In this document: piece after piece, positions 1 to 7,369 of the stretch
Position numbering within the stretch: position 1 is the first letter of the stretch
Layout of the letters: the number at the start of each line of letters is the position of its first letter
The notes under the pieces: model-generated
Told to the model about the DNA's origin: nothing
Databases searched by the model: none
Seen by the model: the letters and a program-made list of their open reading frames with translations, nothing else
DNA from: Planctomycetota bacterium
Lineage (GTDB): Bacteria > Planctomycetota > Phycisphaerae > WQYP01
Reading direction: 5' to 3'
Assembly: GCA_021785155.1 (NCBI GenBank)
Contig: JAJYGE010000219.1
Location: forward strand, 1 to 7,369
DNA: 7,369 bases
Translations under genes and position numbers: made by a program

Positions 1-2900
1 ATTTCCAAAAGACGGTCGGTTTTGGGATTCCACCGGGCGAAAACGCGTTCGCCGATGCGGAAGGGTAACGGCCCGACCTTGAACCAACTGTTGTCGTGCC
101 ACACTTTTCCCGTGGCATCCCGCACCATGGCCGGTTCGCCCAATGGCCTTGGTGGCTGGTGCTCCAACGTGACCAGGGGAAGTTGATAGGGCGTTATGGG
201 GGTCAAACCGACGATCTTCGCCGTGGCAAAACCCCGGCGCGCGAGGATACGTGTCGCCACGGAATTTTCGATAGTGATCGTCACGTCGTCACCAGGGAGC
301 AGATCGGCCAAGGGAATGGAGGCCTCCGGTTGGCCATTTTCGCTAATATTAATCTGCGCCTGTGGACTGACCATCAGCGGTGGAACGGCGATGCCATCGT
401 AGGGGTCATAGTTGAGATTTCCACCGTTCACTCCGCCGCACTCGCCCATTACCGTTCGGTACGCCGGCTGCGGCAGCCACTGTGCCGGTGGCGGTTCCGC
501 CGGGGCTACATGCCGCCGCCAGATAACTTGCGCCAGGTCATTGGCTTTACGGTAGGATCCGGACGTAAATAACTGTTCAGCCAAGGTCCGTTGGTGACGC
601 TCTTGAGCGCTTAACGTGCGGCGCGGAATTGAATTCGCCAACGTGAGACTCCAATGCGCATCGGCCCGCCAACCCACCAGGCTGGCCTCCGCCCGTAAGC
701 GGTCGCCGCCATAACTGCGATTCGATGCGCATAGTTCCTCCAGATTTCCCGGCCATTTTTGTTCCAACGCCACACTGAACAGGCATACCCACGACGGCAG
801 GCCGGACGGATGAAAGTCATAGGCCACCCACAATTTATCGGAATTTTCAGCAACGCCGCTTATATCCACCTGGCGGGTGGCAATTCCACTGTTGACCATC
901 TGATCAACCTTACGAAGATTGCTACGGCTGGTACCGGCGTATACGGTCAGGCGGCCGGCGGTGCTGTTTTGGCGAAAAACAAAAGCTCTCGCGGTATAGG
1001 AAAGAAGTATTTTGCCAAATGTGTCCCGACCTGTCAGTTGTTGGCTCTCAAAACACAGCAGCAGACGGGTGGTCGTGTTTAACGGTGTCGCGTATAAATG
1101 TTTGCCGCCGCCTGGCCAATCGCGCAAGACGATGTCCGGCCCGGCCTCAACAGCAACAGCATTCGCGTTGTCGTTGCGTTTGGGATTGCGATAATCGCGG
1201 CGGAAAAGTGTCGGCCGCCACGGCTGCGGCCGAAATTCTCCCCATCCAGCTTTCAACGACGGCGTGATCTGACTAAGTTGCGTCACTGACGCATTAAACA
1301 ATGTCAGATAGCTGCATCCACCGGCATACGCGGCATGGACATCACGCACGACGTCCTCCGGAAGGCTGCTGCCGCATTCTCGATTTACCCCGGCGGGGAC
1401 GCCAATTTCCCGGAACTGTTCCAGCAACGCCATGTCGCGAAAAATATCCGCCCATTCGCCGCCGAACCGGCCATATTTCAATACGCCCACCTTGGCCGCA
1501 TCCATCAAGTTATCAAACAAGCCGCCAACGTTAGCTATATATGTATGCGTATATACACGATCCGCAATCGGCGATGGTGCAAGTCCTTTGCGTATGGCCG
1601 CGTTCATCTGGTTATTGTAATATAGCAGGCTTTGTCGCAGGAAATGCCTGGCGGCATGGCTTTCGCCGTGTTCCGGATTTAAATTCACGCCTACGGCTTT
1701 CGCCGCCGCCACCATACATGGGTTAAAATCACCTTCGACTCCGGCCGGTTCACCGGGATCCCCGGCGCACCAGTATGTTACCTCATTATCCAATACCACG
1801 CTGAATATACGCTTGGCGTCGGCCTCCGGCAGCCCCCGGAGCATCGTGCCGAACTGCCAAAAGGCACCGGATTTATAGGTGTTCAACCGGTCATTGCGCA
1901 CGGTAAGCCAGGGAACATTGCTCCACATATTCGGTACCGAGAGCCCATATTCCCGCATTTTAGGCCAGTAGGTGACCTGCTGATAGGTTGGGTCGTACCA
2001 ACGCCCGCCCACGCCGTCAAATCCTGAAGGCGTACCGGCCCACCAGGTGATCGCCTGTATCTCCAACGGCATATCAAAACGCCACGACATCGCAATCGCC
2101 TGCTTCAGGTATGCCAATTGGTCGGCAGGCGGCCAATCGGCCACGGCTAACGTCGGCACACAATAGCCCAGCGTCATGTCCTGGCGCTTCGGGAACAGGC
2201 TGCGAATTTTGGCGAATATCCCCGGATCCAAATTCTCAATGGTGGGAGCCAGGTATATTGGCTGCACCAATCTTTCGCGCCGGGCAAAGGCTTCCACATC
2301 GGAATACACAATGGCCTGGGCAAAATGGATCGGCACATCGCACTTGTTGATAAGCCTGACACGCAATTCCGATGCGCCAGCCAATTCATCTGGAATGTCG
2401 ATAAACGCGGTCGTTGGACCATCCCCATAAAATTTCCGATTACGAAACGCAATGGCCCGTCCATTAACTTCCACGAGATAAGCGACGTGACCGTCGTTTT
2501 CAGTACGGAACTCCCGCAGAACCAGCGTCAGATCCCCGGCATGGCCGCGATTATGCAGCCGCAAGGCCAATGGTGTCCCATTTTGTATAATACCGGGGCC
2601 GCGCATGGGAATGACCCTTTCACCGACTTTCCAGTTGTAATCCACTATGGGCGTGCCGCCGGTGATGTGCCGGGCATGCCAATTGCGAGAATCGCCCAAG
2701 TCGACGCGGTCAACGATACCCGGCTCCGAGACGGAGGGGAGTCTCTCTGATACTGTGCATCCCGGCACAGCGCCCAGTGTCGCCGCCGCCGCTGTCATCA
2801 AAAGGAAACTTCTTCGGCTTGTGCCGCTGCCTGTGGGTGGTGTCCCCACGGCTTCCGCCACCATCACACCTCGACCATCCACACTGTGCCAACCGAACAT
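1..2900 (-). CDS. Large Tat-exported protein, putative glycoside hydrolase-like, partial (C-terminus off the left edge)
   Basis: The frame is open from ATG at 2900 to the window edge: 966 codons with no stop. The start is supported by GAAGGG six bases upstream; Met13 is an in-frame alternative. Residues 28-34 (SRRSFLL) form a twin-arginine motif, followed by an Ala-rich hydrophobic stretch and V-P-G-C ending at Cys48, so this may be a Tat lipoprotein. Residues about 65-215 look beta-rich. Residues about 225-540 resemble an (alpha/beta)8 barrel: AITWWAG (W286-W287), PNMWSNVPW, VVLDNEVTYW (D371, N372, E373), YTHTYI, FGGEW (E482), VNRECG (E508), then a final strand-like CSYLTLFNA. By analogy with clan GH-A, E373 could be the acid/base and E508 or E482 the nucleophile; this is inference. 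Residues about 620-700 look like a beta-sandwich, possibly carbohydrate binding. A short helical segment follows (around N787), then more beta-rich sequence. I do not recognise the family. It is last in a run with GH92 and LamG genes, 64 bp after GH92, which suggests a role in glycan breakdown. Confidence 0.9.
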   Translation of the reverse strand, partial: MFGWHSVDGRGVMVAEAVGTPPTGSGTSRRSFLLMTAAAATLGAVPGCTVSERLPSVSEPGIVDRVDLGDSRNWHARHITGGTPIVDYNWKVGERVIPMRGPGIIQNGTPLALRLHNRGHAGDLTLVLREFRTENDGHVAYLVEVNGRAIAFRNRKFYGDGPTTAFIDIPDELAGASELRVRLINKCDVPIHFAQAIVYSDVEAFARRERLVQPIYLAPTIENLDPGIFAKIRSLFPKRQDMTLGYCVPTLAVADWPPADQLAYLKQAIAMSWRFDMPLEIQAITWWAGTPSGFDGVGGRWYDPTYQQVTYWPKMREYGLSVPNMWSNVPWLTVRNDRLNTYKSGAFWQFGTMLRGLPEADAKRIFSVVLDNEVTYWCAGDPGEPAGVEGDFNPCMVAAAKAVGVNLNPEHGESHAARHFLRQSLLYYNNQMNAAIRKGLAPSPIADRVYTHTYIANVGGLFDNLMDAAKVGVLKYGRFGGEWADIFRDMALLEQFREIGVPAGVNRECGSSLPEDVVRDVHAAYAGGCSYLTLFNASVTQLSQITPSLKAGWGEFRPQPWRPTLFRRDYRNPKRNDNANAVAVEAGPDIVLRDWPGGGKHLYATPLNTTTRLLLCFESQQLTGRDTFGKILLSYTARAFVFRQNSTAGRLTVYAGTSRSNLRKVDQMVNSGIATRQVDISGVAENSDKLWVAYDFHPSGLPSWVCLFSVALEQKWPGNLEELCASNRSYGGDRLRAEASLVGWRADAHWSLTLANSIPRRTLSAQERHQRTLAEQLFTSGSYRKANDLAQVIWRRHVAPAEPPPAQWLPQPAYRTVMGECGGVNGGNLNYDPYDGIAVPPLMVSPQAQINISENGQPEASIPLADLLPGDDVTITIENSVATRILARRGFATAKIVGLTPITPYQLPLVTLEHQPPRPLGEPAMVRDATGKVWHDNSWFKVGPLPFRIGERVFARWNPKTDRLLE

Positions 2901-2964: not shown

Positions 2965-5349
2965 TTACTTTCTAACGTGTGCCGCCGCCCCGGTGGACAT
3001 TGACCAGGGCCGTGCGTCGCCAGCGGAACCCCAAGCCTTATTCGGATGGGGACCCACCCGCATATCCCACACGCCACCGTTGGTAATTACCGATTCCGAC
3101 AGCCAGGGACGATTCAGCGTTTGGCCATTGAGCGTAGAGGATTGAATGTACATGTTTTTTCCGCCGGCTCCGGGCGCGTTGATGATAAATTGTCGGCCTT
3201 TGTAGGGTGCTCGCAGACGGATGACTATGTGCTTAAACCGTGGCGTGGAGATGACAAACTCCGGCCGCCCCGGAAATTCCGGATAGATACCCAGTTGCGT
3301 TAATACATACCATGCGCTCATTTCCCCACAGTCATCATTTCCGCCACCGGCCAGGCCGCCAGGAGCATCGGTAAATGCCTTATCCGCCACTTGGGCGACA
3401 TATTTCTGCGTAAGCCAGGGATAGCGGGCGTAGTCAAACTCCCAAGGTGCCTCCAAGTCCGGCTCGTTGGTGGGATCGTAATGACCGGCGTTAAAAAAGT
3501 GTTGCAGCCGCACCGTAAATCGTCGGTCGCCACCCAGCAGTTCAATAAGCCCCCGGACATCCTGCGGTGCCAGCCATAGATATTCCCATGCGGAGCCTTC
3601 ACAGTAAAAACTGAAGTCATATTGATCCCGCCGTTTCCTCGTCATTTTTCGCCAGGCTCCCATCGCCGTTTTTCCCTGCATAAAGCCGGTGGCCGGATTA
3701 TAGAGCGTGCGGTAGCCCAGTGCCCGCTGGGCGAGGTAGGCGGCGAGTCCCGTCTTGTGAAATTCTTTGGCGAATTGCGCCAGCGCGGCAAAGGCAATAT
3801 CGTACTCTTCCGCCGTTGCAACGTTGGTATTCGCGGCAATGGCCGCGCCATGCTTCTCCCGCCACACACCCTGGTATGGCCCAGGTGCCTGATTGTGCCA
3901 GCGTGATACCCCGTTGGGACTATAGGTATGCGGCCACAATGGCCCTTGTCCTTGTCCCACGCACCAATCGGCGGAGTTGCGGACCACGGTTTGCCGCAAC
4001 ATCGCTTTCCATGCGGTTTTCACATTAAAGTTATGGACGCCGGCGTTCCAGATACTCACCAGGGCAATCGTCAACGGGTTGCCATTCATCACCCCGGTGG
4101 AGACGTTGGCCTCCGGCCAGCGATCCATATATCCCTGTTGTTTATACATCTCCACCAGCGACTGCGCCATATCCGCAACCCGTTGCGGCTCCAAAATGGT
4201 CAGGAGTGGAATTTCACTGCGATAAATATCCCAGCCCGAAAAATTGGCGTAAATGTGTTTATGGCTGGTGGGGACATGATGAATTTTACCGTCAAAGCCA
4301 ACGTATCGGCCATCCACATCATCGAATACATTGGGCATTAGCAGCGCATGATAGAGTGCCGTATAGAAAATTGTGCGATGCGCCGCCGAACCGCCACGCA
4401 CCTGAATAACACTTAGCGCCTTGTTCCATTTCCGCAACGCCGCAGCGCGGTAGGTGAAGAATTTCCAACTCGGCATTTCTGCTTTAAGATTACGGATCGC
4501 ACCGTTGATACTCACGTAGGATATGCCCACCCGAACCCGAATGGCGGTTTGTCGGGAGATCGCGGGCCAGGATACATAGGCCCCGATATTACCGTGCTTG
4601 GGGCCTTGCGTTACGGAGGAATCTCCGTGCATGACGGTATGGTTCTTCCAGGTCCCATGCGTCTCGAAGGGGCGGCTGAACTGCATGGCAAAATAAACGG
4701 CAACATTTCTTTTTATTCCACAGAAGGCCTGCGAGGAAACGAATCCCGTTAACGTCCGATCACCGACGATTTGGACCTTACTGGCTGCAACGGGCGTATT
4801 GGCCAAACCGATGGGAAGCAGAATGTTTCTCCGCAAACCGGCCGGAAAGGTGAACTTCACCATGCCGCAGCGTGTGGTTGCGGTAAGCTGAGCCTTAATT
4901 CCCCAAGGTTTCATGAGCACCCGGTAATAGCCGGGAATGGCCCGTTCATCCTGATGGCTGAATGTAAATCTGCATTGTTTTTGTTGGACGCGCACGGGCC
5001 CGGTGGTCGCGGTGAATAGGACATCACCATAGTTCAATGCTCCCGTCCCACTCATCATATTCATGGCGAAGCCACGGTATCGTTTCCGATTGTAACCATA
5101 TCCGCCAATCATCAACTTGGACGCAATAGGATTGATCGAAGCCATGCCGAACGGCACCACCGCGCCCGGATAAGTGTTACCGCCATCGGCAGTGCCGATG
5201 AAAGGATTTACCAGCGCCGCCGGGCCAAGGTTTGTCGCCGCCAGCAGATTCTGGCCGAAGAACAACAGACCAATACATGCCGTCAGGATAACCATCGGTG
5301 TGTGGAGAAACTTTTGGAACTGGTGATTCGTCATTACGGGAAGGCGCAT
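2965..5349 (-). CDS. Secreted GH92 family alpha-mannosidase
   Basis: A full-length 794-residue member of glycoside hydrolase family 92: calcium-dependent, inverting exo-alpha-mannosidases. An N-terminal signal (hydrophobic about 18-32, likely cut after A37-A38) sends it out of the cytoplasm; L-T-A-C at 22-25 resembles a lipobox but sits inside the hydrophobic core. The N-terminal beta domain has NPFIGT (48-53) and the N-T-Y-P-G-A..P-F-G-M motif (58-69). The helical barrel has FYTALYH (328-334), GWDIYR (W373, D374, R377), YCEGSAWEY with the likely general acid E584, NEPD (N628-D631, calcium and substrate region) and GNDDCGEMSAWYV (N671, D672, D673), which supplies the catalytic base. Linkage specificity (alpha-1,2, -1,3, -1,4 or -1,6) cannot be told from sequence alone. 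After NEPD the usual H-x-P-Y-L-Y-N is replaced by E-A-P-W-E-F-D, a notable variation. The start at 5349 follows GAGGA with nine-base spacing; Met6 has no such site. The gene begins 12 bases after the LamG stop codon, pointing to coupled expression. Confidence 0.96.
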   Translation of the reverse strand: MRLPVMTNHQFQKFLHTPMVILTACIGLLFFGQNLLAATNLGPAALVNPFIGTADGGNTYPGAVVPFGMASINPIASKLMIGGYGYNRKRYRGFAMNMMSGTGALNYGDVLFTATTGPVRVQQKQCRFTFSHQDERAIPGYYRVLMKPWGIKAQLTATTRCGMVKFTFPAGLRRNILLPIGLANTPVAASKVQIVGDRTLTGFVSSQAFCGIKRNVAVYFAMQFSRPFETHGTWKNHTVMHGDSSVTQGPKHGNIGAYVSWPAISRQTAIRVRVGISYVSINGAIRNLKAEMPSWKFFTYRAAALRKWNKALSVIQVRGGSAAHRTIFYTALYHALLMPNVFDDVDGRYVGFDGKIHHVPTSHKHIYANFSGWDIYRSEIPLLTILEPQRVADMAQSLVEMYKQQGYMDRWPEANVSTGVMNGNPLTIALVSIWNAGVHNFNVKTAWKAMLRQTVVRNSADWCVGQGQGPLWPHTYSPNGVSRWHNQAPGPYQGVWREKHGAAIAANTNVATAEEYDIAFAALAQFAKEFHKTGLAAYLAQRALGYRTLYNPATGFMQGKTAMGAWRKMTRKRRDQYDFSFYCEGSAWEYLWLAPQDVRGLIELLGGDRRFTVRLQHFFNAGHYDPTNEPDLEAPWEFDYARYPWLTQKYVAQVADKAFTDAPGGLAGGGNDDCGEMSAWYVLTQLGIYPEFPGRPEFVISTPRFKHIVIRLRAPYKGRQFIINAPGAGGKNMYIQSSTLNGQTLNRPWLSESVITNGGVWDMRVGPHPNKAWGSAGDARPWSMSTGAAAHVRK

Positions 5350-6399: not shown

Positions 6400-7311
6400 C
6401 TACCATCCAAAATACCATGAGTTCACTCTGGCGCACCGCACCTTGATGTTGGACAATGGCACCCACCGCACCGATCCGTCGTTGTACATTTCATGTTCAC
6501 CGGCGGGCTCGGAATTCGACATGGAGCCATCGACATGATTCGATAGCGGCACACCGTTAAGCACATAACCGTCCCCGCCGTTGACGGTCGGCCCGGTAAA
6601 TACGGCCAGGTCACTGGCTAAAATGGAGCCAGGGTTGGCCTGGGGGTTCAGCGCCGGCTCATGCCCCGGATCATCATTATACCAAGCCCAGACCCCCGGC
6701 CCGGTCCCGGAGTAAGTCCCGCCGTAGCCAGCCCACGGTGGCAGATCGTATGCCACGCTGTAGTTCGTCTGAACCGTGGTCGGATTCGTCGCAAGCCAAC
6801 CCGGTTGCATTCCATGGTCCGCCCAGTAACAATATCCGACATAGGTATAGAAGCTGGTCGCAATTCCCTGCGCATTATAATATGCGGGATTACCCAAGTT
6901 GCTACTGTAACTGAACGCTCCTGGTTCCGGCGAATAAATAAGTTGCGTGCCGCCGATCGTCGGTTGTAATATTCCCGGCTGAAAATTCTGCGTTGACGCA
7001 ACGCCATACCCAGGTGCCACACCGGAGTAATAGAGCAGTTCCAGGCCCCACGCGGGATATACTTGGCCACTACCTCCATACGGGCCAACGAGAGGAAGAA
7101 ACGTTGAGTTCGGTGGATATTGCCCTCTATATTCATTGGCGTATTCATGCAGGGCAATGCCGATTTGCCGCATGTTGGATGCGCACTGTATCCGTAACGC
7201 TAATTGCTTGGCCCGCGCCAGTGCCGGCAGCAGCAGGGCAATTAGCAATGCAATGATGGAAATTACCACTAAAAGCTCGATAAGCGTAAAACCGTGTGCG
7301 CGCTTAGACAT
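6400..7311 (-). CDS. Prepilin-type (type IV pilin-like / DUF1559-type) secreted protein
   Basis: A 303-residue protein beginning with a classic type III (prepilin) signal: a short basic leader ending in G7, a cut before F8, the conserved Glu at mature position 5 (E12), then a hydrophobic helix to about residue 31. A prepilin peptidase would process it, and the mature protein would sit in the membrane or a pseudopilus-like fibre. [12 protein letters not shown] follows the helix as in the DUF1559 group. Near the C-terminus, [12 protein letters not shown] (D278, G279) corresponds to the family's H...D-G motif, although the H-to-DG spacing (H273 or H259) is not the canonical nine residues. The middle is rich in Gly, Tyr, Trp and Pro. 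The ATG at 7311 is chosen because it follows AGAAAGG by seven bases and gives the correct short leader; an in-frame ATG at 7365 would add 18 residues. Such proteins occur in many copies in planctomycete genomes and their individual roles are mostly unknown. Confidence 0.93.
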
Positions 7312-7318
7312 CGTAGAG

Positions 7319-7325
7319 CCTTTCT
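7319..7325 (-). promoter_or_regulatory. Ribosome binding site of the prepilin gene
   Basis: The minus strand reads AGAAAGG, then seven bases, then ATG at 7311. It sets the start at 7311 rather than 7365 and partly overlaps the second copy of the tandem repeat in the leader. Confidence 0.65.
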
Positions 7326-7341
7326 GCTCGCTTCTGCTCGC
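7322..7341 (-). repeat. Perfect 10-bp tandem repeat in the prepilin leader
   Basis: On the plus strand TTCTGCTCGC occurs twice head to tail (7322-7331 and 7332-7341); the minus-strand unit is GCGAGCAGAA. The two copies are identical and end in the ribosome binding site of the prepilin gene. Confidence 0.85.
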
Positions 7342-7350
7342 TGTGCGAGC
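7326..7350 (-). promoter_or_regulatory. Possible alternative hairpins in the prepilin 5' leader
   Basis: In the minus-strand RNA, GCUCGC (7350-7345) can pair with GCGAGC at 7341-7336 across a three-base loop, or with the identical GCGAGC at 7331-7326 across a 13-base loop. Both stems are perfect over six pairs. The second ends two bases before the AGAAAGG site. A translational role is possible, but nothing here proves it. Confidence 0.35.
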
Positions 7351-7369
7351 TATCGTATTGCCCATTGGC

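What the first reader, a model, noticed from the sequence alone, without database searches (positions are those of the whole stretch)
1..2900. Very large Tat-exported protein with a possible new glycosidase barrel
Over 966 residues are open to the window edge, with a clear twin-arginine signal and a possible lipobox Cys48. The middle third looks like a clan GH-A-like barrel: a strand ending D371-N372-E373, then FGGEW (E482) and VNRECG (E508), with a final strand-like segment. The 135-residue distance from E373 to E508 suits an acid/base and nucleophile pair. I cannot assign it to any named family. Sitting directly after a GH92 mannosidase, it is a good candidate for an undescribed enzyme acting on the same glycan.
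Basis: partly seen in the sequence, partly recalled or inferred. Interest (0 to 1): 0.72.

Follow-up and report, generated by a model that had tools for sequence, protein, structure and literature searches.

The report
New family of TIM-barrel sugar-cutting enzymes
The gene encodes a large exported protein whose core looks like a known type of sugar-cutting enzyme but matches no family in the libraries searched, and some of its relatives in very different bacteria sit beside genes for enzymes that trim mannose or galactose, so it probably opens up sugar chains that those helpers finish.

Summary

Context hints at the substrate. The window and locus L001 share GH92-then-barrel order. In Paenibacillus and Cohnella, seven of eight first-copy loci have a GH38 gene nearby; three loci of one branch have a melibiase (GH36-type) gene instead. 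There the barrel protein has an export signal and often SLH domains, while partner enzymes look cytoplasmic. So it probably cuts extracellular glycans bearing alpha-mannose or alpha-galactose; the bond is unknown, and most of the wider family shows no such partner.

The parts
3..2900 (-). Open reading frame of the new barrel protein, 966 codons, 3' end just outside the window (nearest database protein is 972 aa)
2799..2819 (-). Twin-arginine motif S28-R-R-S-F-L-L34 of the Tat-type signal
   Evidence: sequence; Pfam and NCBIfam Tat models below cut-off; 4 of 22 members match the Pfam Tat model at E 0.1 or better
2757..2759 (-). Cys48, possible lipobox cysteine (VPGC)
   Evidence: kept in 7 of 9 rows P0002-P0010; lipidation untested
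2301..2723 (-). N-terminal beta-sandwich, about residues 60-200, function not assigned
   Evidence: secondary structure of the full model
1236..2264 (-). (beta/alpha)8 catalytic-type barrel, about residues 213-555
   Evidence: models; fold searches
2028..2045 (-). W286-W-A-G-T-P291 at the start of the long loop after strand 3; W287 57 of 57, D295 53 of 53, Q308 57 of 57 in the same loop
1782..1790 (-). D371-N372-E373 just after strand 4; E373 proposed acid/base (55 of 57); N372 in 44 of 57
1728..1730 (-). Asp391, invariant 57 of 57
1455..1457 (-). Glu482 at strand 6, invariant 56 of 56; third conserved carboxylate, role unknown
1377..1379 (-). Glu508 at the end of strand 7, invariant 56 of 56; proposed nucleophile
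741..1223 (-). Second beta-sandwich, about residues 560-720
   Evidence: secondary structure
501..713 (-). Helical segment, about residues 730-800, with Arg736 (55 of 55)
3..488 (-). C-terminal beta-rich domain, about residues 805-966
   Evidence: secondary structure
2965..5349 (-). GH92 gene directly upstream (64 bp gap); the family is known for exo-alpha-mannosidases (recalled)
   Evidence: Pfam PF07971 and PF17678, TIGR01180
5362..6195 (-). Laminin_G_3 (LamG-like) protein with an export-signal-like N-terminus, 12 bp before GH92
   Evidence: Pfam E 1.4e-16; N-terminus by eye
6400..7365 (-). DUF1559 / type IV prepilin-like protein, 204 bp before the LamG gene
   Evidence: Pfam PF07963 and PF07596

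Best explanation
The protein is an exported glycoside hydrolase of an undescribed family with the clan GH-A layout. [quoted passage not shown] Inferred: E373 is the acid/base, E508 the nucleophile, and it hydrolyses an equatorial (beta-type) glycosidic bond with retention by double displacement. Inferred from operons of part of the family: it acts outside the cytoplasm as the chain-opening enzyme on glycans that carry alpha-mannose (or, in one branch, alpha-galactose); the products are then trimmed by exo-alpha-glycosidases, GH92 here, GH38 or a GH36-type melibiase in Paenibacillaceae. The exact bond, and whether the enzyme is endo-acting, are not shown.
Against: No activity has been measured, as far as my searches show, for any member. 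E373 is absent in 2 of 57 rows (L031 and L041 read MEWG, with Glu two positions earlier). The best structural score is to GH14, which inverts and cuts alpha-bonds (recalled). GH92 lies beside the barrel only in the window, L001 and the broken contig L009; 10 of 17 host genomes searched have no GH92 match. By my own profiles GH38 is in 7 of 48 stretches and GH92 in 2 of 48, so most loci show neither; GH36 and GH27 were not sought in all 48. The GH38 loci are, L047 apart, one clade and not independent; L013 and second copies L113 and L114 have no GH38. In the full model the loops 287-299, 322-330 and 374-389 have pLDDT below 50; in the barrel model only 385-387 do. Side-chain distances could not be measured here.
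Confidence: 0.68

Rival explanations
1. GH14-like inverting enzyme: Glu on strands 4 and 7 as here, but acting by single displacement on axial alpha-bonds, for example of an alpha-mannan, with GH92 or GH38 finishing the same polymer.
Against: GH14 leads the best GH35- and GH42-type rows by only about 0.9 to 1.5 Z. Foldseek ranks GH35 first. Asn before E373 in 44 of 57 rows matches the clan GH-A enzyme GH164. No GH14 Pfam match in the 48 members of A5.
Confidence: 0.17
2. Exo-acting glycosidase (beta-galactosidase or beta-mannosidase type, like GH35, GH42 or GH164) rather than a chain-opening endo-enzyme.
For: The 50 rows shown for the barrel are beta-amylases, beta-galactosidases, an alpha-L-arabinopyranosidase and a beta-1,2-glucosyltransferase, exo-enzymes or a transferase as recalled; the GH92 partner is itself exo-acting (recalled).
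Against: In the Paenibacillaceae loci looked at, the barrel protein is the one enzyme seen with an export signal, often with SLH domains, near importer genes, which fits depolymerisation outside the cell better. Long repeat modules and a below-cut-off dockerin match in P0025 also fit polymer work.
Confidence: 0.3
3. Member of a recently created CAZy family that has no Pfam model, no PDB entry and no NCBIfam model; that is, already classified but not visible in these libraries.
For: CAZy could not be searched here; CAZy families without a solved structure exist (recalled).
Against: No assigning match in Pfam, NCBIfam or PDB. Source names, given for 5 of 24 rows P0002-P0025 and 10 of 24 rows P0026-P0049, say hypothetical, uncharacterized or S-layer/SLH domain protein. 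Three locus tags of members occur in no held paper, a weak test.
Confidence: 0.2
4. Non-catalytic or carbohydrate-binding barrel protein.
For: Much of the protein is beta-sandwich and all-beta modules; some GH-fold proteins are non-catalytic (recalled).
Against: E373, E482, E508, D391, W287 and Q308 are kept at 96-100% over rows down to 18% identical to the query.
Confidence: 0.05

Closest known systems
GH35 beta-galactosidases and the beta-1,2-glucosyltransferase of Ignavibacterium album (GH35 type as recalled)
   Different: No Pfam GH35 match in 48 members; profile-profile probability 0.65% over 35 columns
GH42 beta-galactosidases
   Different: No Pfam GH42 match in 48 members; profile-profile probability 0.3%
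GH14 beta-amylases
   Same: Highest barrel Z, 23.7; catalytic Glu on strands 4 and 7 (recalled)
   Different: No Pfam GH14 match in 48 members; some neighbours are mannosidases and galactosidases, not starch genes
GH164 beta-mannosidase Bs164
   Different: Family profiles A1 and A5 match no PDB chain of it up to E 10
Xanthan utilisation cluster of Paenibacillus taichungensis (GH9 xanthanase with GH38, GH92, GH88 and PL8)
   Same: A depolymerase in one cluster with GH38 and GH92 mannosidases and transporter genes (PMC12827396, passages)
   Different: Here a barrel protein, and no GH9, GH88 or PL8 match among the 34 neighbour proteins scanned with Pfam

Membership tests
Clan GH-A | (beta/alpha)8 catalytic barrel | tested here: met
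Clan GH-A | Acid/base Glu after strand 4, usually preceded by Asn | tested here: met
   E373 follows strand 365-370; E in 55 of 57, N372 in 44 of 57
Clan GH-A | Nucleophile Glu at the end of strand 7 | tested here: met
   E508 ends strand 504-508; 56 of 56; position only, the role is inferred
Clan GH-A | Retaining double-displacement hydrolysis | not testable with these tools
   Needs NMR of products or a trapped intermediate
GH42 | Sequence match to the family model | tested here: not met
   Pfam scan of 48 members; hhalign probability 0.3% against 16 GH42 sequences
GH35 | Sequence match to the family model | tested here: not met
   Pfam scan of 48 members; hhalign probability 0.65% against 12 of 16 fetched GH35 sequences
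GH14 | Sequence match to the family model | tested here: not met
   Pfam scan of 48 members
GH14 | Inverting cleavage of alpha-bonds | not testable with these tools
   Fold closest by Z, by a small margin
GH164 | Sequence similarity to the founding enzyme | tested here: not met
   Profiles A1 and A5 hit no GH164 PDB chain up to E 10
GH164 | Fold and catalytic layout | tested here: inconclusive
Any recent CAZy family without Pfam, NCBIfam or PDB entry | Membership by CAZy's own models | not testable with these tools
   CAZy and dbCAN are not on hand
Tat-exported lipoprotein | Twin-arginine motif and lipobox Cys | tested here: inconclusive
   SRRSFLL present but models below cut-off; Cys48 in 7 of 9 close rows

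The most novel reading that the evidence does not exclude
A new glycoside hydrolase family that is an exchangeable 'opener' module: in different phyla it is paired with whichever exo-alpha-glycosidase fits the local glycan (GH92, GH38, a GH36-type melibiase, perhaps GH27), and within one Paenibacillaceae operon one family member has been swapped for a member only 26% identical while the three neighbours compared stayed 85-92% identical. In its boldest form it works on alpha-mannan with GH14-like inversion; I know of no such enzyme (recalled).
Probability: 0.13. Interest if true: 0.76.

Novelty: new variant of a known kind. Interest (0 to 1): 0.56.

Why it matters
If right, this is an uncatalogued glycosidase family found in records named Planctomycetota, Armatimonadetes, Victivallales, Verrucomicrobiaceae, Omnitrophota, Paenibacillus, Cohnella, Clostridia and Actinopolymorpha, now labelled 'hypothetical' or 'S-layer' protein where labelled at all. 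It would add a testable entry point to the breakdown of mannosylated or galactosylated polysaccharides, and it gives named residues and members in named isolates (Paenibacillus and Cohnella strains) for a direct assay.

Tried and rejected
Sequence-level family assignment: Pfam and NCBIfam on the protein, Pfam on 22 members and on 48 barrels, NCBIfam on 41 members (one member hits an endo-glycanase model, by inference the GH16 piece of P0017 seen), PDB by sequence with the protein and two profiles: nothing beyond weak single matches. A single-sequence scan of genome contigs found nothing; the alignment scan found 48 loci.

Profile-profile tests: GH42 with all 16 fetched sequences; GH35 with 12 of 16 fetched (for L076-L078 the right frame was not recovered, L080 was not put in). 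Probabilities below 1%.

GH92 as a general partner: rejected for the family as a whole. 10 of 17 host genomes have no match, and a GH92 profile made from two sequences finds it in the stretches of L001 and L009 only, of 48. L009 was not counted as conserved order, since its barrel piece begins near residue 263 right after a GH92 piece, as in a broken assembly. GH38 in L010: my notebook entry counts it from a BLAST cluster; the profile search did not confirm it and it is not counted.

Substrate-assisted Asp-Glu dyad (GH20/GH123-like): thought unlikely because position 372 is Asn in 44 of 57 and Asp in 7 while E508 is invariant. Viral relatives: Foldseek against BFVD, nine matches at E 0.001 or better, best 1.9e-5, read as general barrel matches. 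Literature: seven paper searches listed no paper that by title or abstract start is about this family; PMC11087588 and PMC11002231 were seen by passages only and gave nothing on it.

That other families are absent from the fold lists says nothing against them.

Full report
Observation. The window's minus strand encodes, in order, a DUF1559/prepilin-like protein (7365-6400), a LamG-like protein (6195-5362), a GH92 protein (5349-2965) and the protein in question (2900-3, open at the edge). Gaps are 204, 12 and 64 bp (from the coordinates), so at least the last three could be one operon. The nearest database protein, P0002, differs at two residues and ends six residues beyond the window.

Relatives. 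The first protein search gave 22 rows (P0002 included), the second added P0024 and P0025. A scan of one genome for each of 84,980 species with the alignment gave 48 loci, in records named, among others, Planctomycetota, Victivallales, Armatimonadetes (incl. Chthonomonas), Abditibacteriaceae, Omnitrophota, Sumerlaeota, Verrucomicrobiaceae, Paenibacillus and Cohnella, gut Clostridia and Actinopolymorpha. In the class of L001's genome 7 of 198 genomes have a match at E 0.001 or better; three are strong (G001, G002, G009) and four lie at E 1.8e-4 to 5.4e-4. So it looks like a sporadic accessory gene. Source names, given for 5 of 24 rows P0002-P0025 and 10 of 24 rows P0026-P0049, say hypothetical, uncharacterized or S-layer/SLH domain protein.

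Conservation. Over 57 rows (9 proteins, 48 loci; L009 lacks the second half): E508 56/56, E482 56/56, N536 56/56, W287, Q308, N324, W331, Y376, W377 and D391 57/57, D295 53/53, E373 55/57, N372 44/57, H452 42/56. The exceptions at E373, L031 and L041, form one clade and read MEWG with a Glu two positions earlier. D or E at 371 occurs in 51 of 57.

Mechanism. Asn-Glu on strand 4 and Glu on strand 7 is the ground on which GH164 was placed in clan GH-A; there the Asn binds O2 and the enzyme is retaining (PMC7105311, passages). Spacing is 137 there and 135 here. I infer a retaining mechanism with E373 as acid/base and E508 as nucleophile. The invariant third carboxylate E482 is unexplained. GH14, the best-scoring fold, inverts (recalled); this cannot be excluded from models, and side-chain distances could not be measured here.

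Family. No assigning Pfam model in 48 barrels (best single match E 0.0094), no NCBIfam model for the barrel, no PDB sequence relative, hhalign probability below 1% to GH42 and GH35. In the GH35 comparison the best local stretch, though not significant, aligns the NE of strand 4 with GH35's ENE motif, as a shared layout would. CAZy was not searchable.

Context. (a) Phycisphaerae-type genomes: L001 repeats the window's order pilin, LamG, GH92, barrel, with 71% identity in the barrel protein (L001's pilin gene is read from its sequence, not from Pfam). L002, at 49%, has no GH92 in its stretch. (b) Paenibacillus and Cohnella: of eight first-copy loci, seven (L011, L012, L014, L015, L023, L026, L047) have GH38 within the fetched stretch (Pfam-confirmed in L011, L012, L014 and L026). 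In L015 it lies about 6 kb away; in L023 it is in pieces. Importer and LacI-type regulator genes nearby are read from their sequences; only L012's solute-binding protein was confirmed by Pfam. With 7-18 GH38 matches per 7-9 Mb genome, chance placement would give roughly 0.24 of 8; the loci are related, so this is not a p-value. First copy L013 and second copies L113 and L114, a fully supported branch of the quick tree, have a melibiase (GH36 type, recalled) instead. (c) By eye, the barrel proteins of L012, L014, L026 and L047 begin with an export signal, the GH38 proteins of the same loci and L012's MGH1-like and GH78 proteins do not. SLH domains are listed for 11 of 24 rows, not for L015 or L047. 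So the barrel protein is the one enzyme seen there that would meet a polymer outside the cell. (d) L012 and L047 have GH38, MGH1-like and GH78 neighbours that are 91%, 92% and 85% identical, but barrel proteins that match at only 26%; L047's genome showed no other member, and L047 lies far from L012 on the tree, on a long branch with weak support. I read this as replacement of one family member by another in the same operon slot. (e) P0025 carries, before its barrel, a stretch 39% identical to the separate gene next to the barrel in gut Clostridia L019 and a below-cut-off dockerin match; L022 has an alpha-galactosidase (Melibiase_2, GH27 type) about 3 kb away. (f) P0017 carries a partial GH16 domain.

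Against a general rule: by my profiles GH38 is in 7 of 48 stretches and GH92 in 2 of 48; GH36 and GH27 were not sought in all 48. Most of the wider family therefore has no known partner here.

[quoted passage not shown] No GH9, PL8 or GH88 match was seen among the 34 neighbour proteins scanned, so xanthan itself is not favoured; another glycan with alpha-mannose is plausible.

Confidence by step: barrel of GH-A layout about 0.95; active glycosidase about 0.9; not in Pfam, NCBIfam or PDB, shown; new to CAZy about 0.8; retaining about 0.75; substrate bearing alpha-mannose for the window's clade about 0.65; endo-acting about 0.6.

Noticed in passing
L012:3946-17481 and L047:3528-14783: Operon slot swap: three neighbours 85-92% identical, barrel proteins 26% identical.
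   Followed up: partly
L041 (genome G017): One planctomycete genome has 13 matching stretches of the barrel profile, some of them pieces of one frame; the other 16 genomes of that search have 1 to 3.
   Followed up: no
L031 and L041: Clade in which the Asn-Glu of strand 4 is replaced by MEWG; both have an MFS_2 sugar transporter gene in the stretch.
   Followed up: partly
P0025; L019:4178-10539: Barrel and repeat-module protein are fused in P0025 (repeats first) and are separate neighbours in L019 (barrel first).
   Followed up: partly
P0017, residues 1085-1152: Partial GH16 domain behind the barrel protein, possibly a fusion or an incomplete gene.
   Followed up: no
L009 genome (G009): 15 GH92 matches in a 3.2 Mb genome, the most of the 17 genomes searched; some are pieces.
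   Followed up: no
window:5362-7365 (-): A DUF1559 prepilin-like gene and a LamG gene precede GH92, and the same order recurs in L001; their link to glycan use is unknown.
   Followed up: partly
L021, L024, L025, L033, L043: Armatimonadetes-named branch with Asp-Asp-Glu after strand 4 (read directly in L021, L024, L025 and L043) and Tyr instead of His452, perhaps a different specificity.
   Followed up: no
L012 and L015 barrel proteins; P0027: Weak C-terminal matches to a hyaluronate-lyase N-terminal beta-sheet domain (E 0.027 and 0.0084, below cut-off); PF21461 is listed for P0027.
   Followed up: no
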